Below are positions 4,793-60,677 of a DNA stretch of 64,000 nt, one piece after another. Each line of letters opens with the position of its first letter. Position 1 is the first letter of the stretch. Source of the stretch: a virus; the IMG/VR virus record IMGVR_UViG_3300045051_000172, positions 1-64,000 of that record; one strand, 5' to 3'. The notes below the pieces were generated by a model, which was not told where the DNA came from, searched no databases, and worked only from the letters and a program-made list of their open reading frames with translations. A program made the translations under genes and the position numbers.

Positions 4793-5076
4793 TGGGTGAC
4801 ATTTTAAAATTCGGTCGAGGCCCAAAATCCCCGAAGCCAGAACCAAAGAAAGATATGTTTAATCCTTTGCGCGTAATCCTCGCGATGGCATTTCTTTTGT
4901 TGATCGCCACAAGTTTACTTCCGTTCTTTCTCGTGTACGGAATCCTGTACGTTTTTCTCCCAAAGGCATCTAAGGAAGATTCCATGATCTTGATTGGAAT
5001 AGCGAATGCTTATCTGATGGATTTCTTGCGCAGCGTTGAAACCGGCAAGCGAGTTTTTACTGACGTTGATCGCTGA
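4792..5076 (+). CDS. Small membrane protein
   Basis: A 94-aa protein with a Lys/Pro-rich N-terminal tail and one long hydrophobic stretch (about residues 26-52) that could make one or two membrane helices. Its 3' end overlaps the convergent di-iron gene by 67 nt. Function unknown. Confidence 0.5.
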   Translation: MGDILKFGRGPKSPKPEPKKDMFNPLRVILAMAFLLLIATSLLPFFLVYGILYVFLPKASKEDSMILIGIANAYLMDFLRSVETGKRVFTDVDR

Positions 5077-5480
5077 AAGAAGTATTCTCGGTGTTCTCGT
5101 TCAACCATTGCCAATTCTTTTAAAATCAATTTAGTTCTTAGGTCAGAAGTGAACTTCGAAACGAATTCGTAATTCACAACTCCTAGAATTTCAATCATGG
5201 CTGCCCCGAGCATGGGAAGCCTACGTCCTAAAAAATGGCAAAGGGAACCCATTAACTTCCCTATCATTTTAAAAATCAGATCAATGAAAGGACTGGGAGA
5301 ACTTTCCAATTCCGACAAAAGCAAAGACAGCATGTGTCGATGTTTTAATTCTTGAAACTGAATAAATTTTACTTCAGAAATTTCTGTTGGATCGGAGAGA
5401 GATTTCCAATGACCTTCATAAGCATGGTAGGCCCCAATCTCGACTCCATGGGAAAGTTTTAGAAACAATTTAAAAAGCAT
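5010..5480 (-). CDS. Ferritin-like di-iron protein, Coq7-like
   Basis: The 156-aa helical protein shows the residue pattern of ferritin-like carboxylate-bridged di-iron proteins: E14 in a GAYHAYEGH stretch, an ExxH at E44/H47, Glu at 97 and 105, and a second ExxH at E127/H130. Spacing and hydrophobic helices recall Coq7 (demethoxyubiquinone hydroxylase), which uses the metal pair to activate oxygen on membrane quinones. The substrate here is unknown; iron storage or peroxide removal are alternatives. It is the last gene of the long leftward operon and overlaps the end of the rightward gene at 4792-5076. Confidence 0.6.
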   Translation of the reverse strand: MLFKLFLKLSHGVEIGAYHAYEGHWKSLSDPTEISEVKFIQFQELKHRHMLSLLLSELESSPSPFIDLIFKMIGKLMGSLCHFLGRRLPMLGAAMIEILGVVNYEFVSKFTSDLRTKLILKELAMVEREHREYFFQRSTSVKTRLPVSTLRKKSIR

Positions 5481-9938: not shown

Positions 9939-10544
9939 CTACTCTTTACGAGGGGTCCATTGGAAGTCTTCGATCTTCTTTCGAAGCTTCGTCATCTTTT
10001 TGACGGCCATCTGCTGTTTCATTGTGGATAGGTGCTCGATGAAGCACTTGCCATCCAAATGATCGCATTCGTGTTGAATGATCTGAGCAAGGAAGCCTTT
10101 GGCATCGGGAAGATTTACGGCCATGCCGGTCTCAATGGAATCTAATGTGTAATATGTAACGTCCACTTCTTCCGACCGCGCAATGTTTTCATAGTAGCCG
10201 GGGAGACTGAGACAGCCTTCAGAGACTACTTTCTTCTCGGAATGGAAAACGATTTCAGGATAAAGCATGTAAAAACGCTTTTGTTGTTCGGGAGGAAGTT
10301 CATCACCTTTATCGGACTTTGAGGGATCAATAACAGAAACTGCCCAGTCAGTAATTCCGATTTGATTGGAAGAGAGCCCCACACCTACGGGGATTGCGTC
10401 GAGAGTATCCCACATATCTTGGAGAATTAATTCGAGAACGCCTTTGTCCGCTTTCAACTGAGCCAAGATAGCTTCATGCGTTGCTGGTCGAAGACAGGGA
10501 GTTTTTAATGGGCCTCTTGGGTAAATTAAAACTGGCTTAATCAT
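9939..10544 (-). CDS. def: Peptide deformylase
   Basis: A 201-aa enzyme with all three deformylase motifs: GVGLSSNQ (54-61), EGCLSLP (109-115) and HECDH (158-162). The Cys of motif 2 and the two His of motif 3 hold the metal; the Glu is catalytic. It removes formyl groups from new proteins. Phage versions are known but usually lack the C-terminal extension; this one keeps about 40 further residues. The start overlaps the upstream lipoprotein stop (ATGA), so the longer frame is rejected. Confidence 0.93.
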   Translation of the reverse strand: MIKPVLIYPRGPLKTPCLRPATHEAILAQLKADKGVLELILQDMWDTLDAIPVGVGLSSNQIGITDWAVSVIDPSKSDKGDELPPEQQKRFYMLYPEIVFHSEKKVVSEGCLSLPGYYENIARSEEVDVTYYTLDSIETGMAVNLPDAKGFLAQIIQHECDHLDGKCFIEHLSTMKQQMAVKKMTKLRKKIEDFQWTPRKE

Positions 10545-10861
10545 TGAACACCTACTGATCCTTTTGATTTTGGTTTTTCTTGAATCGGAACGCCCCACAT
10601 CACACGGGTTTTATCATCCATGACGATTCGTTGTCGCATTCCGCAATTTTTATAGGTAATCCAGAGTTCAACCGTGTTGTATTTTTGAACTTCGGGATCG
10701 CGAGGAATTACATCGTAGCCGGACTGTTCACACTCTTCTTTTGGATTTTCGAGAGAAAACATTTTGCGTTCAGTCTCTACAAAAATGAATCTGTAGGGAT
10801 TCGTGTGAGAGGAACATCCGAAAAGGAACACTGACAAAACACCGATAAAACACTGTTTCAT
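10541..10861 (-). CDS. Lipoprotein of unknown function
   Basis: A 106-aa protein with a short signal peptide and lipobox ending LFGC (Cys16) followed by SS, so it should be lipidated and face the periplasm. The rest is polar with two more Cys. It is translated just ahead of the deformylase. Superinfection exclusion or envelope alteration is possible but unproven. Confidence 0.65.
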   Translation of the reverse strand: MKQCFIGVLSVFLFGCSSHTNPYRFIFVETERKMFSLENPKEECEQSGYDVIPRDPEVQKYNTVELWITYKNCGMRQRIVMDDKTRVMWGVPIQEKPKSKGSVGVQ

Positions 10862-11121: not shown

Positions 11122-11318
11122 TATTGATTCCTCACAAGTTCTACAGTTAGTCCGGTCTCAGTTAAACGTATCATGATTGGATAGGTTTTGTCATTCGATA
11201 TCTGAATATCGACTCCATGAAACATCGAGCTTTCGGCATATCCATTTCCGTGAATTCCAATTGCTCCGCCCGGTTCTAGGAGATGATTTTTGATTCTTTC
11301 GTCTTTGATCTCGCTCAC
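11121..11318 (-). CDS. Hypothetical small protein
   Basis: A 65-aa beta-rich protein whose ends overlap both neighbours by a few bases. It has a Gly-rich part (LEPGGAIGIHGNGYAE) without a known motif. Function unknown. Confidence 0.5.
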   Translation of the reverse strand: MSEIKDERIKNHLLEPGGAIGIHGNGYAESSMFHGVDIQISNDKTYPIMIRLTETGLTVELVRNQ

Positions 11319-11671
11319 TTGATACTCCTTATGTAGCTTCGATTCGAATAGACTTCACAAAGCTTCAGGTGTTCTTCGACCGCATTTTCTTTCGTCAGAT
11401 GTTTGACGGTTTTAATCGGCCCTTTGTTATAGTCTACGTCCCATGGGCCTGCGGCTTTCTCTTTCATGTGGAACACTACTGTCTGGAAATACAAGTCCGG
11501 ACCAAATACGGCAGTTGGCCTGTAATCTAAACTACTTAGGATATTTCCAATGGTGTTTATGCAATATTTACCTACCGTCGTTGTCTCGCAAAAATTTGCA
11601 TGGATGGCAAGGGCAACGTGCTCGAACCCAAGGGCTTGCTTTGACCATATCCATTGATCCCTTGAAATCAC
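11315..11671 (-). CDS. Hypothetical protein, first gene of leftward operon
   Basis: About 118 aa from a GTG with AGGAG six nt upstream. An in-frame TTG at 11716 would add 15 residues but overlaps the promoter palindrome and has no Shine-Dalgarno. No family recognised. It leads the 17-gene leftward operon that runs to 5010. Confidence 0.5.
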   Translation of the reverse strand: MISRDQWIWSKQALGFEHVALAIHANFCETTTVGKYCINTIGNILSSLDYRPTAVFGPDLYFQTVVFHMKEKAAGPWDVDYNKGPIKTVKHLTKENAVEEHLKLCEVYSNRSYIRSIK

Positions 11672-11702
11672 GTTTTCTCCTACAAAAAGAGTAGCAGGGT
11701 AC

Positions 11703-11729
11703 TTGACGGGCGTCAAGAGGTTCTATAAC
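11703..11729. promoter_or_regulatory. Divergent promoter region with TTGACG palindrome
   Basis: A 14-bp palindrome, TTGACG-GG-CGTCAA (11703-11716), offers a -35-like box to each strand. Rightward, TATAAC (11724-11729) follows after 15 nt and the lipoprotein gene starts at 11752. Leftward, TACTCT lies 17 nt away, before the gene that starts at 11671. The palindrome could also be an operator. Confidence 0.45.
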
Positions 11730-11751
11730 CTGAAAGCAAGGAGAGCTGCAC

Positions 11752-12927
11752 ATGACCTTAAAACTTCTATCGATCTTTTCTTTAACCCTTTTCTTATTTG
11801 CTTGCGGAAGTGAAAATTCGCAATCCGAATATGAGCCGGTCGACGTAACAGATCAGATAAATAAGCTTAACGGTAAGATTGAAGCTTTGATGTTGATTTC
11901 GGGACAGTTAGAAACAATCGTGAATAGTCCTTTCTATGACTGTAACCTTGCCGACGCTTTGATTCGTACAATGTGCCAAGTGGCCCAACAATCTGAGAAT
12001 GAAATTCGAACCGAACTATATAGTGCGATGGGCACCTATCAAGCAACTCTTCAATCCCAAATTGATGCGGATCGAACAGATTTGGCGAACCATGAAGCTG
12101 CAATCAATGCCGCCAACGCTGCAATTGCCACAAATACTGGAAACATCGCTTCTAATACGGCTGCGATTGCTGCCGCTCAGGCCAGTCTAACTTTGTTGGA
12201 TTCCCGAGTTACGACTTTGGAAAGCTCCGTAGTAACCTTAGGTAGCCGAGTGACCTCTGCCGAAGCTGCGATTCTTGCCTTACAAAATAGCATTGCCTCG
12301 ATCAACGGTTCGCTATCTGGAACTTTAACTTTGGTCACGATTGGTAAGGAAAACGTAGCTGCAGGTCCAGTTTATGAAACCGTACTTCGCCAAACTGATA
12401 AGAAAAACTTCAGTGGCTATGCAAGTGCCTTTGGTGCCTACCAATCTTTCGGAAACAATCCAGCAGACCCAACCAACGGTTCAAGCTCCGTTGTGTTCAC
12501 GTTGACTGCACATGGTTACGCGGCCAATGATATTGTGGAACTCTCAGGCCTTACCTCAGGAAGTGGACTACTCACTGGGGATGTGCTGGGTCAATTTGTA
12601 ATTCAATCAGTTACGGCAAATACTTTCACTTTGACTCTTGCGCGAAATGCTACGAGTGGCAACGTGTTCGGAGGAAGTGCTGGAACTGTTCGTAAATACA
12701 ACGGCTCAGGTATGTCAAATTTTTGGACCGCCGGACAAGCAAGTGATGTTGCGGTTCGACAAACTTCAGCCGGTACGAAAAAATATAACTTTATTATTCG
12801 TAGAATTTCTACGGATGTCTCAAATCAAACTGCAGAACTCTGCTATGACAAAACGAACGCGACCGCGCTGTTCGCTACGATCAATGCAGCTCCTGCGGGC
12901 GGATCTGGGAATATCGCTTGTAAGTAG
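11752..12927 (+). CDS. Lipoprotein with coiled coil and fibre-like domain
   Basis: A 391-aa protein with a signal peptide and lipobox LFAC (Cys18). Residues about 35-180 are a long Ala/Asn/Thr-rich coiled coil with repeats (IATNTGNIASNTAAIAAAQ). A C-terminal beta domain (about 240-310, TAHGYAANDIVELSG) resembles domains of phage tail proteins, including the gp6-like protein in this window. It is preceded by AAGGAGA. A periplasm-facing lipoprotein carrying a fibre-like domain could mask the phage receptor, as superinfection-exclusion lipoproteins do, or be exported for another purpose. This is inference. Confidence 0.6.
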   Translation: MTLKLLSIFSLTLFLFACGSENSQSEYEPVDVTDQINKLNGKIEALMLISGQLETIVNSPFYDCNLADALIRTMCQVAQQSENEIRTELYSAMGTYQATLQSQIDADRTDLANHEAAINAANAAIATNTGNIASNTAAIAAAQASLTLLDSRVTTLESSVVTLGSRVTSAEAAILALQNSIASINGSLSGTLTLVTIGKENVAAGPVYETVLRQTDKKNFSGYASAFGAYQSFGNNPADPTNGSSSVVFTLTAHGYAANDIVELSGLTSGSGLLTGDVLGQFVIQSVTANTFTLTLARNATSGNVFGGSAGTVRKYNGSGMSNFWTAGQASDVAVRQTSAGTKKYNFIIRRISTDVSNQTAELCYDKTNATALFATINAAPAGGSGNIACK

Positions 12928-12947
12928 TTTGAAACGAGGTAGCAGCA

Positions 12948-13280
12948 GTGTCCAATGTTTGTTTAACCTCCTTCATGAAGCCCTGGGGATTGTTATCCCT
13001 GGGGCTATTTATTTTAGGCTGTGAAGATTCAAAGCCAATGTCGAGAGGGAAAAGTGTGTATCTGGGAAATTGCACCTCTTGTCATAACTCCGATCCTAAG
13101 AAAGATGGATCAGTTGGTCCTGCAATTTTCGGAAGTTCGGAAGAGTTGCTTTTTAAGAAACTAAAAACTGGGGAGTATCCAGCAGGGTACAAACCGAAAC
13201 GTCAAACACGAATGATGCCCAAATTCGAAGGGATGAAAGACGATGACATCAGAGAAATTCGAAGATATCTTAGTGAGTAA
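12948..13280 (+). CDS. c-type cytochrome lipoprotein
   Basis: A 110-aa protein starting at GTG after GAGGT. It has a signal peptide with lipobox ILGC (Cys25), a single heme-attachment motif CTSCH (42-46) and Met residues (89-90, RMMPKF) that could supply the second axial ligand, so it looks like a class I monoheme cytochrome c tethered in the periplasm. Heme attachment would depend on the host Ccm system. It lies directly after the lipoprotein gene, apparently in one transcript, and in front of the tail genes. A cytochrome c is very unusual in phage; capture from the host is likely. Confidence 0.8.
   Translation: MSNVCLTSFMKPWGLLSLGLFILGCEDSKPMSRGKSVYLGNCTSCHNSDPKKDGSVGPAIFGSSEELLFKKLKTGEYPAGYKPKRQTRMMPKFEGMKDDDIREIRRYLSE
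12979..13016 (+). terminator. Terminator-like hairpin inside cytochrome gene
   Basis: A 12-bp stem with a TGTT loop (12979-13006, two G-U pairs) is followed by ATTTATTTTA. It lies entirely within the codons for the cytochrome signal peptide. It could end the lipoprotein transcript unless ribosomes on the cytochrome message keep it open. Confidence 0.45.
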
Positions 13281-13434
13281 GATTCGGCTGCACTATGCAG
13301 CGATCATGCTTTTCTTTTTTGGTTACTTTTTCGGAGCCATAGTTCAATGCTTTGCTCTGAAAAATGATTATGAAGCAACAATTAGGTTTCTTAAAAAATT
13401 AGGGTACACAGGTGTCGTATGCACAAAGCAGTAA
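13243..13434 (+). CDS. Small membrane protein
   Basis: A 63-aa protein with one hydrophobic helix (IMLFFFGYFFGAIVQCF). The ATG overlaps the cytochrome end by 38 nt; a GTG at 13273 would overlap by only 8 nt and is equally plausible. Function unknown; being next to the cytochrome may be meaningful. Confidence 0.45.
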   Translation: MTSEKFEDILVSKIRLHYAAIMLFFFGYFFGAIVQCFALKNDYEATIRFLKKLGYTGVVCTKQ

Positions 13435-13634
13435 AAGATATGAAAGTGATTGAACTCGAAAAAATCGAAGAGTTCCTCGATCAACAAATTCGAATGGAAA
13501 AAGAACACCGCAGAATGCGTAGAGCTTTGCGAATTTTGCGTAAGCGCCTGGACTGGAAGTCCCTGGACCCAATTCCTTTCAGCGTAGACGACGCAAACAA
13601 GTTAATAGATAAGGCACTTGAGAGGGTCAAATGA
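13419..13634 (+). CDS. Hypothetical basic helical protein
   Basis: A 71-aa, highly charged protein with an Arg-rich helix (RRMRRALRILRKRLDW). It overlaps both neighbours. It may be the first gene of the neck/tail transcript. Function unknown. Confidence 0.5.
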   Translation: MHKAVKDMKVIELEKIEEFLDQQIRMEKEHRRMRRALRILRKRLDWKSLDPIPFSVDDANKLIDKALERVK

Positions 13635-14062
13635 GAATTCTACTTCATGTGGACCCTGAGATCTACAAGCAACCTTTGTATCGACAGATTCGCTTTCTTT
13701 GCTACGCTCTGCATGATCTTACGACTCCTTTGGAAAATATCACTGAAGTTGGAACTTTTCTGACGGGTAATCCACATAAGCAAATTGAGGGCTGGTTGGC
13801 CGAAAATTCTAATGCCAGACTTTATGTCACGACTTTTGAGCAGGAATCTCACCATCCAACTTTTGAAGTAGTTTTGAGCCTGTCTCTCACGGATTCTGAA
13901 TATTTTGATATTGCCAAACTCAACGAGGATTTCGAGCGTGACATTAAAGCCTTATCCTCGGCTTATCGTCGCGCGGGACTCCTGGCCTGGAACTATGGTT
14001 GCCATAACCTTTTAAATGATATTCTAAGAACATGCCCGGAAACAAAAAAGACTTCTTCATAA
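13631..14062 (+). CDS. Hypothetical protein, probable neck region
   Basis: A 143-aa protein without a recognised motif. It directly precedes three structural-type genes and the sheath, so a role in head completion or neck assembly is likely from position only. Confidence 0.45.
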   Translation: MRILLHVDPEIYKQPLYRQIRFLCYALHDLTTPLENITEVGTFLTGNPHKQIEGWLAENSNARLYVTTFEQESHHPTFEVVLSLSLTDSEYFDIAKLNEDFERDIKALSSAYRRAGLLAWNYGCHNLLNDILRTCPETKKTSS

Positions 14063-18485: not shown

Positions 18486-18896
18486 ATGGCAACGAAAACG
18501 AAAACAGGTAGTAGACTAGCGATCAAGTTGAATGGGGTAAAGATTGCGTTTGCTTCTTCCTTCAACGTCAATCATGAAAACGCTCTCCAAGACATCGAAG
18601 TTTTGGATCAATTGGAAGTTGCAGAGTTTGCTGAAACAGCTCACCGATGCAGCGGTTCAATCAATATTTTTAAAGTCGATGAAAATGCGGCTAACTTGCT
18701 TGGATTTGATCCAAGAAACATCGACGACCTCCTTGGTCAACCAGAGTTAGCTTTAGAAGTTTATGACCGTCTTAATGACAACGTGATTTATGAAATCACC
18801 GGAGTCAAATTTGAAGGCGGATCAGGATCTGTTGATGCTCGCGGAGTCTGGACTGGCGTCTGGAACTTCAAGGGTCGACGCGGATTCGGTCTCTAA
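18486..18896 (+). CDS. Tail tube protein
   Basis: A 136-aa protein with the short beta-barrel-like pattern of contractile-tail tube proteins (N-terminal RLAIKLNGVKIAFASSF, C-terminal GVWTGVWNFKGRRGFGL). It lies after the sheath gene as expected. It polymerises into the inner tube through which DNA passes. Preceded by TAAGGAG. The family assignment is by pattern and position. Confidence 0.75.
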   Translation: MATKTKTGSRLAIKLNGVKIAFASSFNVNHENALQDIEVLDQLEVAEFAETAHRCSGSINIFKVDENAANLLGFDPRNIDDLLGQPELALEVYDRLNDNVIYEITGVKFEGGSGSVDARGVWTGVWNFKGRRGFGL

Positions 18897-20321: not shown

Positions 20322-20584
20322 AAAATTTTCTCAAAAATTACATAGCAATTGGGAGTGCTTTGAGGTCTCCATTTAGTGATAGTCACGTTGTAATTTCCCT
20401 GAGAATTATAGGTGTCTTCGGAGTAACTCTCATAAGGATGAAAATAATGAATGGATACGCATTTGTATCCCTTTTTTCGTTCGGCATTTATCGCCTCGGC
20501 AATTGTTCTAGGATCGTAGACACTGTAAAAAATTTGGCTCTTTACGAAGTCAACGATTTCATCCAATTGCAGTTCCAGGCTCAT
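20318..20584 (-). CDS. Hypothetical small protein
   Basis: An 88-aa alpha/beta protein (helix to residue 35, then beta strands with KCVSIHYFHPY). Overlaps both neighbours by four bases. No family recognised. Confidence 0.5.
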   Translation of the reverse strand: MSLELQLDEIVDFVKSQIFYSVYDPRTIAEAINAERKKGYKCVSIHYFHPYESYSEDTYNSQGNYNVTITKWRPQSTPNCYVIFEKIL

Positions 20585-21423
20585 TTGAGCCCCAATTCCT
20601 TGAGACGTTCATCAAGATATTCCGCCGCAGTGTATCGAGTTGAAAGTCGAACCTCCGGCCTCGGATGAACAAACAAAGGCATAGAGTATCTGGATTCCTT
20701 AGCAGCTTCGCCAGAAGGATTCACAACTCTATGTGTGGTTGATTTGTAATAGCCTGAGGTCGCTTCTTGCAACATATCCCCAGCATTCACAATGACCCAA
20801 CCTTTCTCCGAAGGAACGTCATACCATTCTCCATCTTTAGTTTTCACTTGGAGTCCAGTAGTAGTTGCGGCGGGAAGGAGGGTAATCAAATTGATGTCCT
20901 CGTGCGCGGCGGCTCGAACGGCCCCTTCTTCATGATCTCCGTTCAAAGGAGGGTAGTGCAACACTCGAAGCAAGGTTTGATTAGTGTTTTTGACCATGTC
21001 AATTAATTTTTCAGATCCAGTAAATTGAGAATGATAATCTCCGCAAAGATCCAACCAAAGCAGTAAAGTTTCTCCGAGAGAAGCCAAATATTGTCTGGAT
21101 TCCCAAGTGGCTATTTCAAGACCTTTTGGAATATCACTCTCTCTATAAATATGAAAAAATTCTTTTAAGTCTTTGATTTTACTATCTTTTGAATTCTCTG
21201 AACGGAAAGGAAAATATCCGGAATGGTCGGGTCGAACGTGATAAAGTTCAGAATGTTTCTCAACATTATTGAAAAACAATCCCCAACCTTTATAAACTCG
21301 ATCCAACAATTCTGTAAAAGAGGGATCGCAAAGTTTGAGTACAGCAAAGCCAGTATCTCGTAAAGAATCTGAAAATTGGACGCAGGCTCCAGGAGCTGCT
21401 ATGTCAATGGGCGTTAGTTTCAT
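20581..21423 (-). CDS. 2-oxoglutarate/Fe(II) oxygenase, isopenicillin N synthase family
   Basis: A 280-aa protein with the complete 2OG-Fe(II) facial triad and cosubstrate site: H174-E-D176 (AAHEDINL), H231 (STTHRVVNP) and R245-Y-S247 (RYSMPLF). Overall length and the N-terminal segment fit the IPNS/flavanol-type oxygenases. These enzymes hydroxylate or cyclise small molecules, and some modify nucleic acid bases. The substrate is not evident. It sits between a phosphoesterase and a small gene in the leftward operon, so nucleotide modification is one possibility. Confidence 0.85.
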   Translation of the reverse strand: MKLTPIDIAAPGACVQFSDSLRDTGFAVLKLCDPSFTELLDRVYKGWGLFFNNVEKHSELYHVRPDHSGYFPFRSENSKDSKIKDLKEFFHIYRESDIPKGLEIATWESRQYLASLGETLLLWLDLCGDYHSQFTGSEKLIDMVKNTNQTLLRVLHYPPLNGDHEEGAVRAAAHEDINLITLLPAATTTGLQVKTKDGEWYDVPSEKGWVIVNAGDMLQEATSGYYKSTTHRVVNPSGEAAKESRYSMPLFVHPRPEVRLSTRYTAAEYLDERLKELGLK

Positions 21424-58968: not shown

Positions 58969-58997
58969 TTGACAATTTGCCCTGTTCCCGATACATT
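58969..58997 (+). promoter_or_regulatory. Sigma70-like promoter of chaperonin gene
   Basis: TTGACA (58969-58974), 17 nt, TACATT (58992-58997). The transcript starts near 59004, only about six nt before the ATG at 59010. Confidence 0.65.
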
Positions 58998-59009
58998 TTA
59001 GGGAGACTT

Positions 59010-60677
59010 ATGACTTTAAATCCAAAGAAAATTGCTCAAAAAAACGAGATGGCCGACAAAATGAAAGTTGGCATTTCCCTCGTTGCTTCCATCGTTAAAC
59101 GTACTTTAGGGCCCGGAGGTCTTCCGATCCTAATCGAACGAAATGGACAGAACTTAGAAGGTGATCCTCTTGAGCCCATGATTACGAAAGACGGAGTCAC
59201 CGTCGCAAACGAATGTGCCTCAGACGACCCCGAAGTTGATCTCACTATTCAAACCGTCAAAGCAATTTGTAAGAAAACAAATCGAATCGCTGGAGATGGA
59301 ACTACGACCGCGATTGTTTTAGGTGAGGCTTTATATCTTGAAACTCTCAAAGAGCTGGATGCTGATTCAAATTTGAATCCTCAGATTGTTCGAGAAGAAT
59401 TAGAATTGGCAATCAAAGACGTAGTGGCTGAACTTGAAAAAGTTGCAGTACCTGTAAAAGATTTCGCACGCATTGAACAAGTTGCAAACATTTCTGCAAA
59501 CGGTGAAAAAGAAATCGGCTCAGTAATTCGGGCCGCTTTCGAACACGTTGGAGCTGAAGGCGTCGTCACTATCGATGAAGGTTCCTCAATTGAAACCACG
59601 ATTGATCGAGTTGAAGGTTTTCAATTTGCTCGCGGAGCCGAATCTCAAGATCGTTTTTTCAATAACAAAGAGAGAACTAAGTTCGAAGCCAAAGATGCTT
59701 TGGTAATTATCTATGACGGCAAGATCGACCACAATGGAAAACTGGTCGCGGTCATGAATACGATTTCAAAAGAATTCGCAACTGCCGGAGGCGGCATCGG
59801 AGCCTTCCCGCCAATTTTAATCATTGCGAATGATTTCAGTTTAGATACTCTTCAACTCCTTCTAATCAATAAAGCCGAATCAGGATTAAATTTCTGTGCG
59901 GTTCGAAGTCCCAACACGACTACGATTCGTTCCTTGATGCTTGACGATCTGGCGGTATATCTCGGCGGAACCAAGCTGGGCAATGGAGGCAAAGACCTTC
60001 AATCAGCCGAATTTAAGATTTCCAAGGACCAAAACGGAAAGATGGTTTTTACGGGCGACATCGGATTTGTCTCTTCAGTTATTGTGGATCGCTACAATAC
60101 AACCCTATTCGGAGGCGGAGGAACTGAACAAGCCGTCACTGAAAGAGTAGACCAATTGAATGCCTCCAAAGAAGCCGCCTTCAGTGAATACGACCGCTCG
60201 ATGATTAATGATCGAGTTGCTTCCCTCACAGGTGGAATCGCCAAGATTGGCGTAGGTGGACGGACAGAGTTAGAAATCAAAGAAAAATATCATCGCATTG
60301 AAGATGCCTTGAATGCTTCCCGAGCCGCCATTGAAGCCGGAGTTATCCCAGGAGGAGGCGCGGCCCTTTTCCGAATTGCCGATCAATTGAGTAAGTCCGA
60401 CACTGTTGGCCATAGAATTCTTTCGAAGGCTCTCAAGTCTCCCATATTCCAAATCTTGGATAATATCGGGATCGCTCATGAGAGTCTAAATTTAGATCAG
60501 CTTAAATCTGATCCTACTTTAATTTTCGATGCCCGCAACAAAAAGTTTGTTGATGCATTTGAGGCCGGAATTATCGATCCCTTAAAAGTAACCGTAACTG
60601 CACTTGAGAATGCCGCATCCATTGCCGGACTTCTTTCGACTTGCGGCGGCGGGATTACTTATCTGAGAAAGGTTTAA
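59010..60677 (+). CDS. groEL: GroEL-like chaperonin
   Basis: A 555-aa protein with chaperonin signatures: VKRTLGPGG and KDGVTVANE at the N-terminus, ATP site GDGTTTA (about 96-102), and the KEKYHRIEDALNA and PGGGAALFR block of the C-terminal equatorial domain. It should form rings that fold proteins, here likely tail or head proteins. No GroES gene is seen in the window, so it may need the host cofactor or act alone, as some phage chaperonins do. ATG with GGGAGA is chosen over an upstream start. Own promoter. Confidence 0.92.
   Translation: MTLNPKKIAQKNEMADKMKVGISLVASIVKRTLGPGGLPILIERNGQNLEGDPLEPMITKDGVTVANECASDDPEVDLTIQTVKAICKKTNRIAGDGTTTAIVLGEALYLETLKELDADSNLNPQIVREELELAIKDVVAELEKVAVPVKDFARIEQVANISANGEKEIGSVIRAAFEHVGAEGVVTIDEGSSIETTIDRVEGFQFARGAESQDRFFNNKERTKFEAKDALVIIYDGKIDHNGKLVAVMNTISKEFATAGGGIGAFPPILIIANDFSLDTLQLLLINKAESGLNFCAVRSPNTTTIRSLMLDDLAVYLGGTKLGNGGKDLQSAEFKISKDQNGKMVFTGDIGFVSSVIVDRYNTTLFGGGGTEQAVTERVDQLNASKEAAFSEYDRSMINDRVASLTGGIAKIGVGGRTELEIKEKYHRIEDALNASRAAIEAGVIPGGGAALFRIADQLSKSDTVGHRILSKALKSPIFQILDNIGIAHESLNLDQLKSDPTLIFDARNKKFVDAFEAGIIDPLKVTVTALENAASIAGLLSTCGGGITYLRKV

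What the first reader, a model, noticed from the sequence alone, without database searches (positions are those of the whole stretch)
12948..13280. Phage gene for a c-type cytochrome lipoprotein
Signal peptide, lipobox Cys25 and a CxxCH heme motif (42-46) are all present, with candidate distal Met ligands. Nearby genes are phage structural genes, so this is inside the phage genome. A phage that supplies a membrane-anchored electron carrier could keep respiration going during infection.
Basis: partly seen in the sequence, partly recalled or inferred. Interest (0 to 1): 0.85.

Follow-up and report, generated by a model that had tools for sequence, protein, structure and literature searches.

The report
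Phage-carried cytochrome c electron carrier
A virus of bacteria carries a working-looking gene for cytochrome c, a small haem protein that shuttles electrons in respiration, and at least nine other, mostly unrelated viruses carry relatives of the same gene, which suggests that such viruses supply a respiratory part to the cells they infect.

Summary
Window 12948-13280 (+) encodes a 110-aa, single-haem class I cytochrome c with an N-terminal lipoprotein-type signal, CTSCH at residues 42-46 and an invariant distal Met (M90). Pfam, PDB sequences and a confident AlphaFold model agree. It lies inside a 119-kb tailed-phage contig, has the phage's own base composition, and sits in a cassette missing from the related phage L002. 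It is not unique: ten other IMG/VR records (nine further phages) carry relatives, usually the only gene they share; one pair shows dN/dS 0.13. No match was found in 50,697 deposited phages, PHROGs or BFVD. The bacterial relatives (Bdellovibrionota, Fibrobacterota, Myxococcota, Rokubacteria) form a constant gene pair with a short 4-TM DUF989/Urate_ox_N membrane protein (91 of 117 loci; 17 of 17 in Bdellovibrionota). The phages carry the cytochrome but never the membrane partner. Best reading: an auxiliary metabolic gene supplying the cytochrome half of that host redox pair, carrying electrons to the host oxidase. Haem attachment, the host, the partner's substrate and any benefit are not shown. 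Oddity: a strong terminator hairpin lies inside the signal-peptide codons.

The parts
12948..13280 (+). Phage-encoded class I monohaem cytochrome c with lipoprotein-type signal peptide, 110 aa
   Evidence: Pfam, PDB phmmer, AF2 model and PDB fold search, family alignments
12936..12940 (+). GAGGT Shine-Dalgarno-like run, 7 nt before the GTG start
   Evidence: sequence
12948..13022 (+). Signal peptide and lipobox (FILG-C25)
   Evidence: sequence; no lipidation test possible
12979..13006 (+). 12-bp terminator-like hairpin followed by ATTTATTTTA, inside the signal-peptide codons and 52 bp after the stop of the upstream gene; one of three such strong sites on the + strand of the whole phage
13071..13085 (+). 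Haem-binding CTSCH (residues 42-46)
   Evidence: sequence; invariant C42, C45, H46 in 68 aligned sequences
13176..13202 (+). Family signature YPAGYKPKR (residues 77-85)
   Evidence: Y77, P78, G80, Y81, P83, K84, R85 invariant in 68 aligned sequences
13215..13217 (+). M90, probable distal haem ligand
   Evidence: invariant in 68 aligned sequences
11752..12927 (+). Upstream co-directional 391-aa coiled-coil lipoprotein gene (coiled coil resembling phage tail-needle and minor head proteins); possibly co-transcribed
11315..14031 (.). Variable cassette holding the cytochrome, absent at the syntenic site of the related phage L002
   Evidence: tblastn synteny

Best explanation
This is a functional phage-borne cytochrome c (an auxiliary metabolic or 'moron' gene) acquired from bacteria of or near Bdellovibrionota. 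Shown from sequence: a class I haem-binding fold, a lipoprotein-type export signal, intact haem ligands, membership of one defined bacterial cytochrome subfamily, spread through ten phages, and purifying selection in one phage pair. Inferred: during infection it is exported by Sec, given haem by the host's Ccm machinery, anchored in a membrane facing the periplasm, and acts as the electron acceptor of the host's short DUF989 (Urate_ox_N) 4-TM membrane protein, passing electrons on to the host's cytochrome c oxidase. The phage thereby replaces or augments the host's own cytochrome half of this two-gene unit and keeps electron flow going while host genes are shut down.
For: Fold and haem ligands. 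Inside a 119-kb tailed-phage contig with phage-like composition. Cassette absent from the syntenic site of relative L002, whose flanking genes are 28-62% identical. Ten other virus records with the family; most pairs of these phages share only the cytochrome in the stretches compared. dN/dS 0.13 between the L019 and L022 copies (78% aa identity). The bacterial homologue is next to a short DUF989 gene in 91 of 117 loci, median gap 25 bp, and downstream of it on the same strand in 17 of 17 Bdellovibrionota loci; that neighbour is PF06181, E 5e-13 to 6e-22. Phage copies keep the family-specific YPxGYxPKR...M block. Ccm-type assembly protein present in Bdellovibrionota and absent from the phage.
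Against: No phage record carries the DUF989 partner, so function depends on an unproven host protein. The host is inferred only: the phage sheath was found in none of 241 Bdellovibrionota genomes. The partner's substrate is unknown. A strong terminator inside the signal-peptide codons may keep expression low. Haem attachment, lipidation and redox activity were not tested. The tree has only 84 columns and most forks are weak.
Confidence: 0.55

Rival explanations
1. It is a functional holo-cytochrome, but a general periplasmic electron carrier (bc1 or other dehydrogenase to oxidase) that boosts respiration without any special link to the DUF989 protein.
For: Class I fold; best PDB sequence hits are QcrC and c553-type carriers; phages carry it without DUF989.
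Against: The bacterial family is almost always the neighbour of DUF989 and phage copies keep its signature residues, pointing to a dedicated partner.
Confidence: 0.25
2. It is a decoy: a phage cytochrome that docks on the host DUF989 protein or oxidase and displaces the host cytochrome, blocking or redirecting that pathway.
For: Only the docking half of the pair is taken, never the enzyme; low expression could suffice given the terminator.
Against: Haem ligands are conserved in all the phage copies, which a pure decoy would not need.
Confidence: 0.1
3. It is a passenger: a host gene picked up recently by the phage or by an assembly error, with no role.
For: Such genes can be picked up at random; the upstream terminator may silence it.
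Against: Same family in ten mostly unrelated phages, phage-like composition, dN/dS 0.13 in one pair, no close bacterial copy found: at most about 55% identity in 241 Bdellovibrionota genomes and about 61% over short stretches elsewhere.
Confidence: 0.06
4. It is a virion or haem/iron-handling protein rather than an electron carrier, for example displayed with the neighbouring lipoprotein or tail genes.
For: It lies just before the tail module and after a lipoprotein gene with a tail-needle-like coiled coil.
Against: In other phages its neighbours differ and are often non-structural; the fold and His/Met ligation are those of electron carriers.
Confidence: 0.04

Closest known systems
Bacterial lipoprotein cytochrome c next to short DUF989/Urate_ox_N (PF06181) in Bdellovibrionota, Fibrobacterota, Myxococcota, Rokubacteria
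   Same: Same domain; invariant G34, C42, C45, H46, P58, Y77, P78, G80, Y81, P83, K84, R85, M90; up to about 55% identity in Bdellovibrionota
   Different: Encoded in a phage, without the DUF989 gene
PuuD, membrane cytochrome c urate oxidase (Doniselli et al. 2015, PMC4562309)
   Same: DUF989 membrane domain works with a cytochrome c; that paper also notes short 4-TM DUF989 proteins without a fused cytochrome and with another gene context
   Different: PuuD is one fused 8-TM protein; here the bacterial pair is split, the membrane part is the short form, and the phage has only the cytochrome; urate oxidation is not implied
Cyanophage photosynthetic electron-transport genes (PMC5082946)
   Same: Phage genes thought to sustain host electron flow during infection
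   Different: Photosynthetic, not a c-type haem lipoprotein; different hosts
Phage soxD (Kieft et al. 2021, PMC8190135)
   Same: A cytochrome-c-type subunit gene carried on viral contigs
   Different: Two viral contigs, one lacking the first and both lacking the second cytochrome c motif; an enzyme subunit, not a small carrier
Mycobacterial QcrC, Desulfovibrio c553, cyanobacterial c6 (solved structures)
   Same: Class I cytochrome c fold
   Different: Only about 20-30% identity; different partners

Membership tests
Class I c-type cytochrome (Pfam PF00034/PF13442) | Profile match above curated cut-off | tested here: met
   33.5 bits vs 21.3 and 32.5 vs 27
Class I c-type cytochrome (Pfam PF00034/PF13442) | CxxCH haem site near the N-terminus of the domain and a distal Met | tested here: met
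   CTSCH 42-46; M90 invariant in 68 aligned sequences
Class I c-type cytochrome (Pfam PF00034/PF13442) | Three-helix class I fold | tested here: met
   AF2 helices 33-41, 65-74, 98-109 at high pLDDT; top PDB matches are cytochromes c, probability up to 0.99 although E>0.02
Class I c-type cytochrome (Pfam PF00034/PF13442) | Covalently bound haem | not testable with these tools
   Needs expression with Ccm genes and haem stain or spectrum
Bacterial lipoprotein | Signal peptide with lipobox Cys | tested here: inconclusive
   K11, hydrophobic stretch, FILG-C25 by eye; no signal-peptide predictor or lipidation test available; several phage relatives lack a lipobox
Cytochrome partner of short DUF989 protein | Subfamily signature residues | tested here: met
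   13 invariant columns shared by phage and bacterial members
Cytochrome partner of short DUF989 protein | Gene next to a DUF989 (PF06181) gene | tested here: not met
   Met by 91/117 bacterial loci and 17/17 Bdellovibrionota loci; absent from the whole phage contig and ten other virus records; 0 confirmed in the IMG/VR scan
PuuD urate oxidase | 8-TM DUF989 domain fused to cytochrome c | tested here: not met
   No PF06181 in the phage; cytochrome is a separate 110-aa protein
Phage auxiliary metabolic gene | Metabolic gene of bacterial ancestry inside a bona fide phage genome | tested here: met
   Sheath and other phage genes around it; bacterial family
Phage auxiliary metabolic gene | Kept by selection in phages | tested here: met
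   Ten phages, haem ligands invariant, dN/dS 0.13 for one pair
Phage auxiliary metabolic gene | Expressed in infection and changes host metabolism | not testable with these tools
   No cultured phage-host pair

The most novel reading that the evidence does not exclude
A distinct, phage-dedicated clade of partner-less cytochromes c circulates among otherwise unrelated tailed phages. It plugs into a still uncharacterised host membrane redox enzyme (short DUF989 plus cytochrome c), so that phages steer host respiration by supplying only the electron acceptor. Phage monophyly is not rejected (p-AU 0.76) but not shown.
Probability: 0.35. Interest if true: 0.8.

Novelty: new variant of a known kind. 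Interest (0 to 1): 0.62.

Why it matters
Phages are known to carry photosynthetic electron-transfer genes, but respiratory electron carriers appear to be rare: a survey of nitrogen-cycle phages noted that carriers such as quinones and cytochromes were not observed (PMC8115048). Ten phages carrying the same small cytochrome c, with intact haem ligands and without its usual partner, point to a repeated advantage in controlling host respiration. They also single out an uncharacterised but widespread bacterial redox pair (short DUF989 plus cytochrome c) as something phages exploit. The claim can be tested with simple biochemistry.

Tried and rejected
Single-protein searches for the cytochrome in IMG/VR, phages, plasmids and GTDB contigs found nothing. 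For IMG/VR and GTDB that was a sensitivity limit: a degenerate pattern for YPxGYxPKRxT(xxM) then found both phage and bacterial relatives. The idea that the phages belong to the only clade linked to DUF989 was wrong: my first test looked only for co-directional genes; the other clade has the same gene convergently. Gene order, not presence, splits the tree. A heme-synthesis link (hemB/hemD near the pair) holds for only 2 loci and was dropped. Rubrerythrin, SOD and GlpC-like neighbours occur only in subsets of the bacterial loci. Fold search of the DUF989 model gave no significant match, only weak likeness to cytochrome b6/NarI, E>=0.9. Host test by phage sheath in 241 Bdellovibrionota genomes was empty and uninformative. 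A whole-genome COQ7 search did not re-find the Pfam hit. PHROGs and BFVD hold no relative of the cytochrome.

Full report
OBSERVATION. The ORF at 12948-13280 (+) is as described: GTG start with a GAGGT run 7 nt upstream, 110 aa, a hydrophobic N-terminus ending in FILG-C25, CTSCH at 42-46. Pfam Cytochrom_C and Cytochrome_CBB3 both match above their curated cut-offs, E=1.1e-7. phmmer finds cytochrome c chains of the PDB at 2e-7. AlphaFold2 on a 68-sequence alignment gives block-mean pLDDT 90-97 for residues 31-110, with the three helices of a class I cytochrome c and a low-confidence signal peptide. Foldseek's top PDB matches are cytochromes c6, QcrC and c553 with probabilities mostly 0.8-0.99, although no E-value is below 0.02 for such a small fold.

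IT IS IN A PHAGE. The window is bases 1-64000 of an IMG/VR virus record of 119,478 bp. Around it are a tail sheath (phrog_279, E=1.8e-52), further virion genes, an ATP-dependent DNA ligase, an RNA ligase, a dUTPase, a GroEL and a terminase. The sheath is nearest to Myxococcus phage Mx1 among deposited phages (32%), and no cytochrome is annotated near the Mx1 sheath. The cytochrome gene has GC 0.420 and GC3 0.405 against 0.423 (sd 0.028) and 0.413 (sd 0.075) for phage genes of like length, so it is neither a fresh arrival nor an obvious join. In the related phage L002 the flanking genes are conserved (28%, 57%, 53%, 57% and sheath 62% identity), but the whole stretch 11315-14031, with the cytochrome and the 391-aa lipoprotein gene, is missing: a variable cassette.

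IT IS A PHAGE-BORNE FAMILY. Pattern and alignment searches found ten further virus records, that is nine further phages, since L015 and L016 carry the same genes. Their cytochromes are about 36-53% identical to the window's and keep the haem ligands and the YPxGYxPKR...M block; in L181 the block is slightly altered (YPKDYKPKR). The phage character of these records is supported by terminases (L018, L020), a head protein (L015), a UvsX-like recombinase (L181), a phage dCTP deaminase (L023) and phage ribonucleotide reductase and exonuclease (L019, L022); for L017 and L021 it rests more on the IMG/VR classification. In the stretches compared, most pairs of these phages share only the cytochrome. 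The L019 and L022 copies, from two related phages, are 78% identical with dN/dS 0.13, though dS is near saturation. No relative was found in 50,697 deposited phages with three different queries, nor in PHROGs or BFVD.

BACTERIAL FAMILY AND PARTNER. Forty-eight of 241 Bdellovibrionota genomes have it at E<=1e-6, up to 55% identity. In 91 of 117 loci the neighbouring gene, median gap 25 bp, encodes a short membrane protein of the Urate_ox_N/DUF989 family; many of the rest end near a contig edge. The arrangement is co-directional (DUF989, then cytochrome) in Bdellovibrionota and Fibrobacterota, 17 of 17 in the Bdellovibrionota regions inspected, and convergent in most others. The first tree puts the co-directional set and nine phage sequences on one side of a branch (SH-aLRT 92); with L181 added this grouping is not rejected, p-AU 0.91. 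Phage monophyly is not rejected either (p-AU 0.76), but the tree has 84 columns and is weak. PuuD, the fused 8-TM DUF989-cytochrome c protein, is a urate oxidase; the same paper describes short 4-TM DUF989 proteins without a fused cytochrome and with an unrelated gene context (PMC4562309). The bacterial pair found here therefore looks like a split DUF989-cytochrome redox unit; that it oxidises urate is not implied. PF06181 is absent from the whole phage contig and the ten other virus records tested, with a bacterial positive control, and an IMG/VR scan with a DUF989 alignment confirmed none.

MECHANISM. Most likely the phage provides an exported, membrane-anchored electron acceptor that works with the host's DUF989 protein and passes electrons to the host oxidase. 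Shown: fold, ligands, family, spread, selection in one pair. Inferred: export, haem attachment by host Ccm (assembly protein over cut-off in 6 of 7 Bdellovibrionota genomes tested, absent from the phage), partner, direction of electron flow, benefit.

AN ODDITY. A 12-bp terminator-like hairpin with a T-rich tail (12979-13006) lies within the signal-peptide codons, 52 bp after the stop of the upstream lipoprotein gene. Only three such strong sites exist on the + strand of the whole phage; the other two lie 34 bp after the gene at 18486-18896 and 28 bp after the gene at 89901-91334. It may be the terminator of the lipoprotein gene, so that the cytochrome would be made by read-through at a lower level; this is inference.

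HOST. The nearest bacterial cytochromes are mostly Bdellovibrionota, and a terminase 37% identical to that of cytochrome phage L018 is in a Bdellovibrionota bin. The window phage's own sheath was not found there. Bdellovibrionota is a guess of about 0.6.

NOVELTY. Electron-transfer genes in phages are known (cyanophages), and viral soxD genes missing one or both cytochrome c motifs were reported (PMC8190135). A survey of denitrification phages stated that cytochromes were not observed (PMC8115048). In the papers searched I found no report of a phage-borne small c-type cytochrome family; the library is incomplete. I rate it a new variant of a known kind.

Noticed in passing
window 5010-5480 (-): COQ7-like (ubiquinone biosynthesis hydroxylase / ferritin-like di-iron) protein, Pfam PF03232 E=8.2e-7; a second possible respiratory-chain gene in this phage, but not re-found by the whole-genome search or NCBIfam.
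   Followed up: partly
window 12979-13006 (+): Strong intrinsic-terminator-like hairpin that also encodes the hydrophobic core of the cytochrome's signal peptide; one of only three such sites on the + strand of the phage.
   Followed up: partly
window 58977-60677 (+) and contig 83781-84050 (+): Phage GroEL (NCBIfam E=1e-123, phrog_5725) and a GroES-like small ORF 23 kb away; the GroES guess is by eye only (no Pfam hit).
   Followed up: partly
window 9939-10598 (-): Peptide deformylase gene (Pfam E=4.9e-27).
   Followed up: no
window 20581-21423 (-): 2OG-Fe(II) oxygenase matching phrog_30382 over its full length (E=8e-91), yet with hardly any relative in deposited phages.
   Followed up: partly
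L002 3110-4105 and 4105-4422 (+): The related phage without the cytochrome carries an A-type Fe-S carrier (IscA/ErpA-like, E=2e-29) beside a protein that by eye looks like an NADPH-dependent FMN reductase: other redox genes in the same phage group.
   Followed up: partly
L182 (Bdellovibrionota bin G234, contig 4, 31862-33193): Terminase homologue with six in-frame TAG codons: probably a phage with TAG reassigned, binned with or integrated in a Bdellovibrionota genome.
   Followed up: no
bacterial loci L024-L140, L161-L177: Widespread, uncharacterised two-gene unit: short DUF989 4-TM membrane protein plus lipoprotein cytochrome c, in two main orientations by clade.
   Followed up: yes
L181 8593-9599 (+): Two tandem genes with long Ala/Tyr/Thr-rich repeats close to the phage cytochrome.
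   Followed up: no
L078: A genome record titled Klebsiella pneumoniae carries the cytochrome and groups with Myxococcota and Rokubacteria copies; the record is probably a mislabelled metagenome bin.
   Followed up: no
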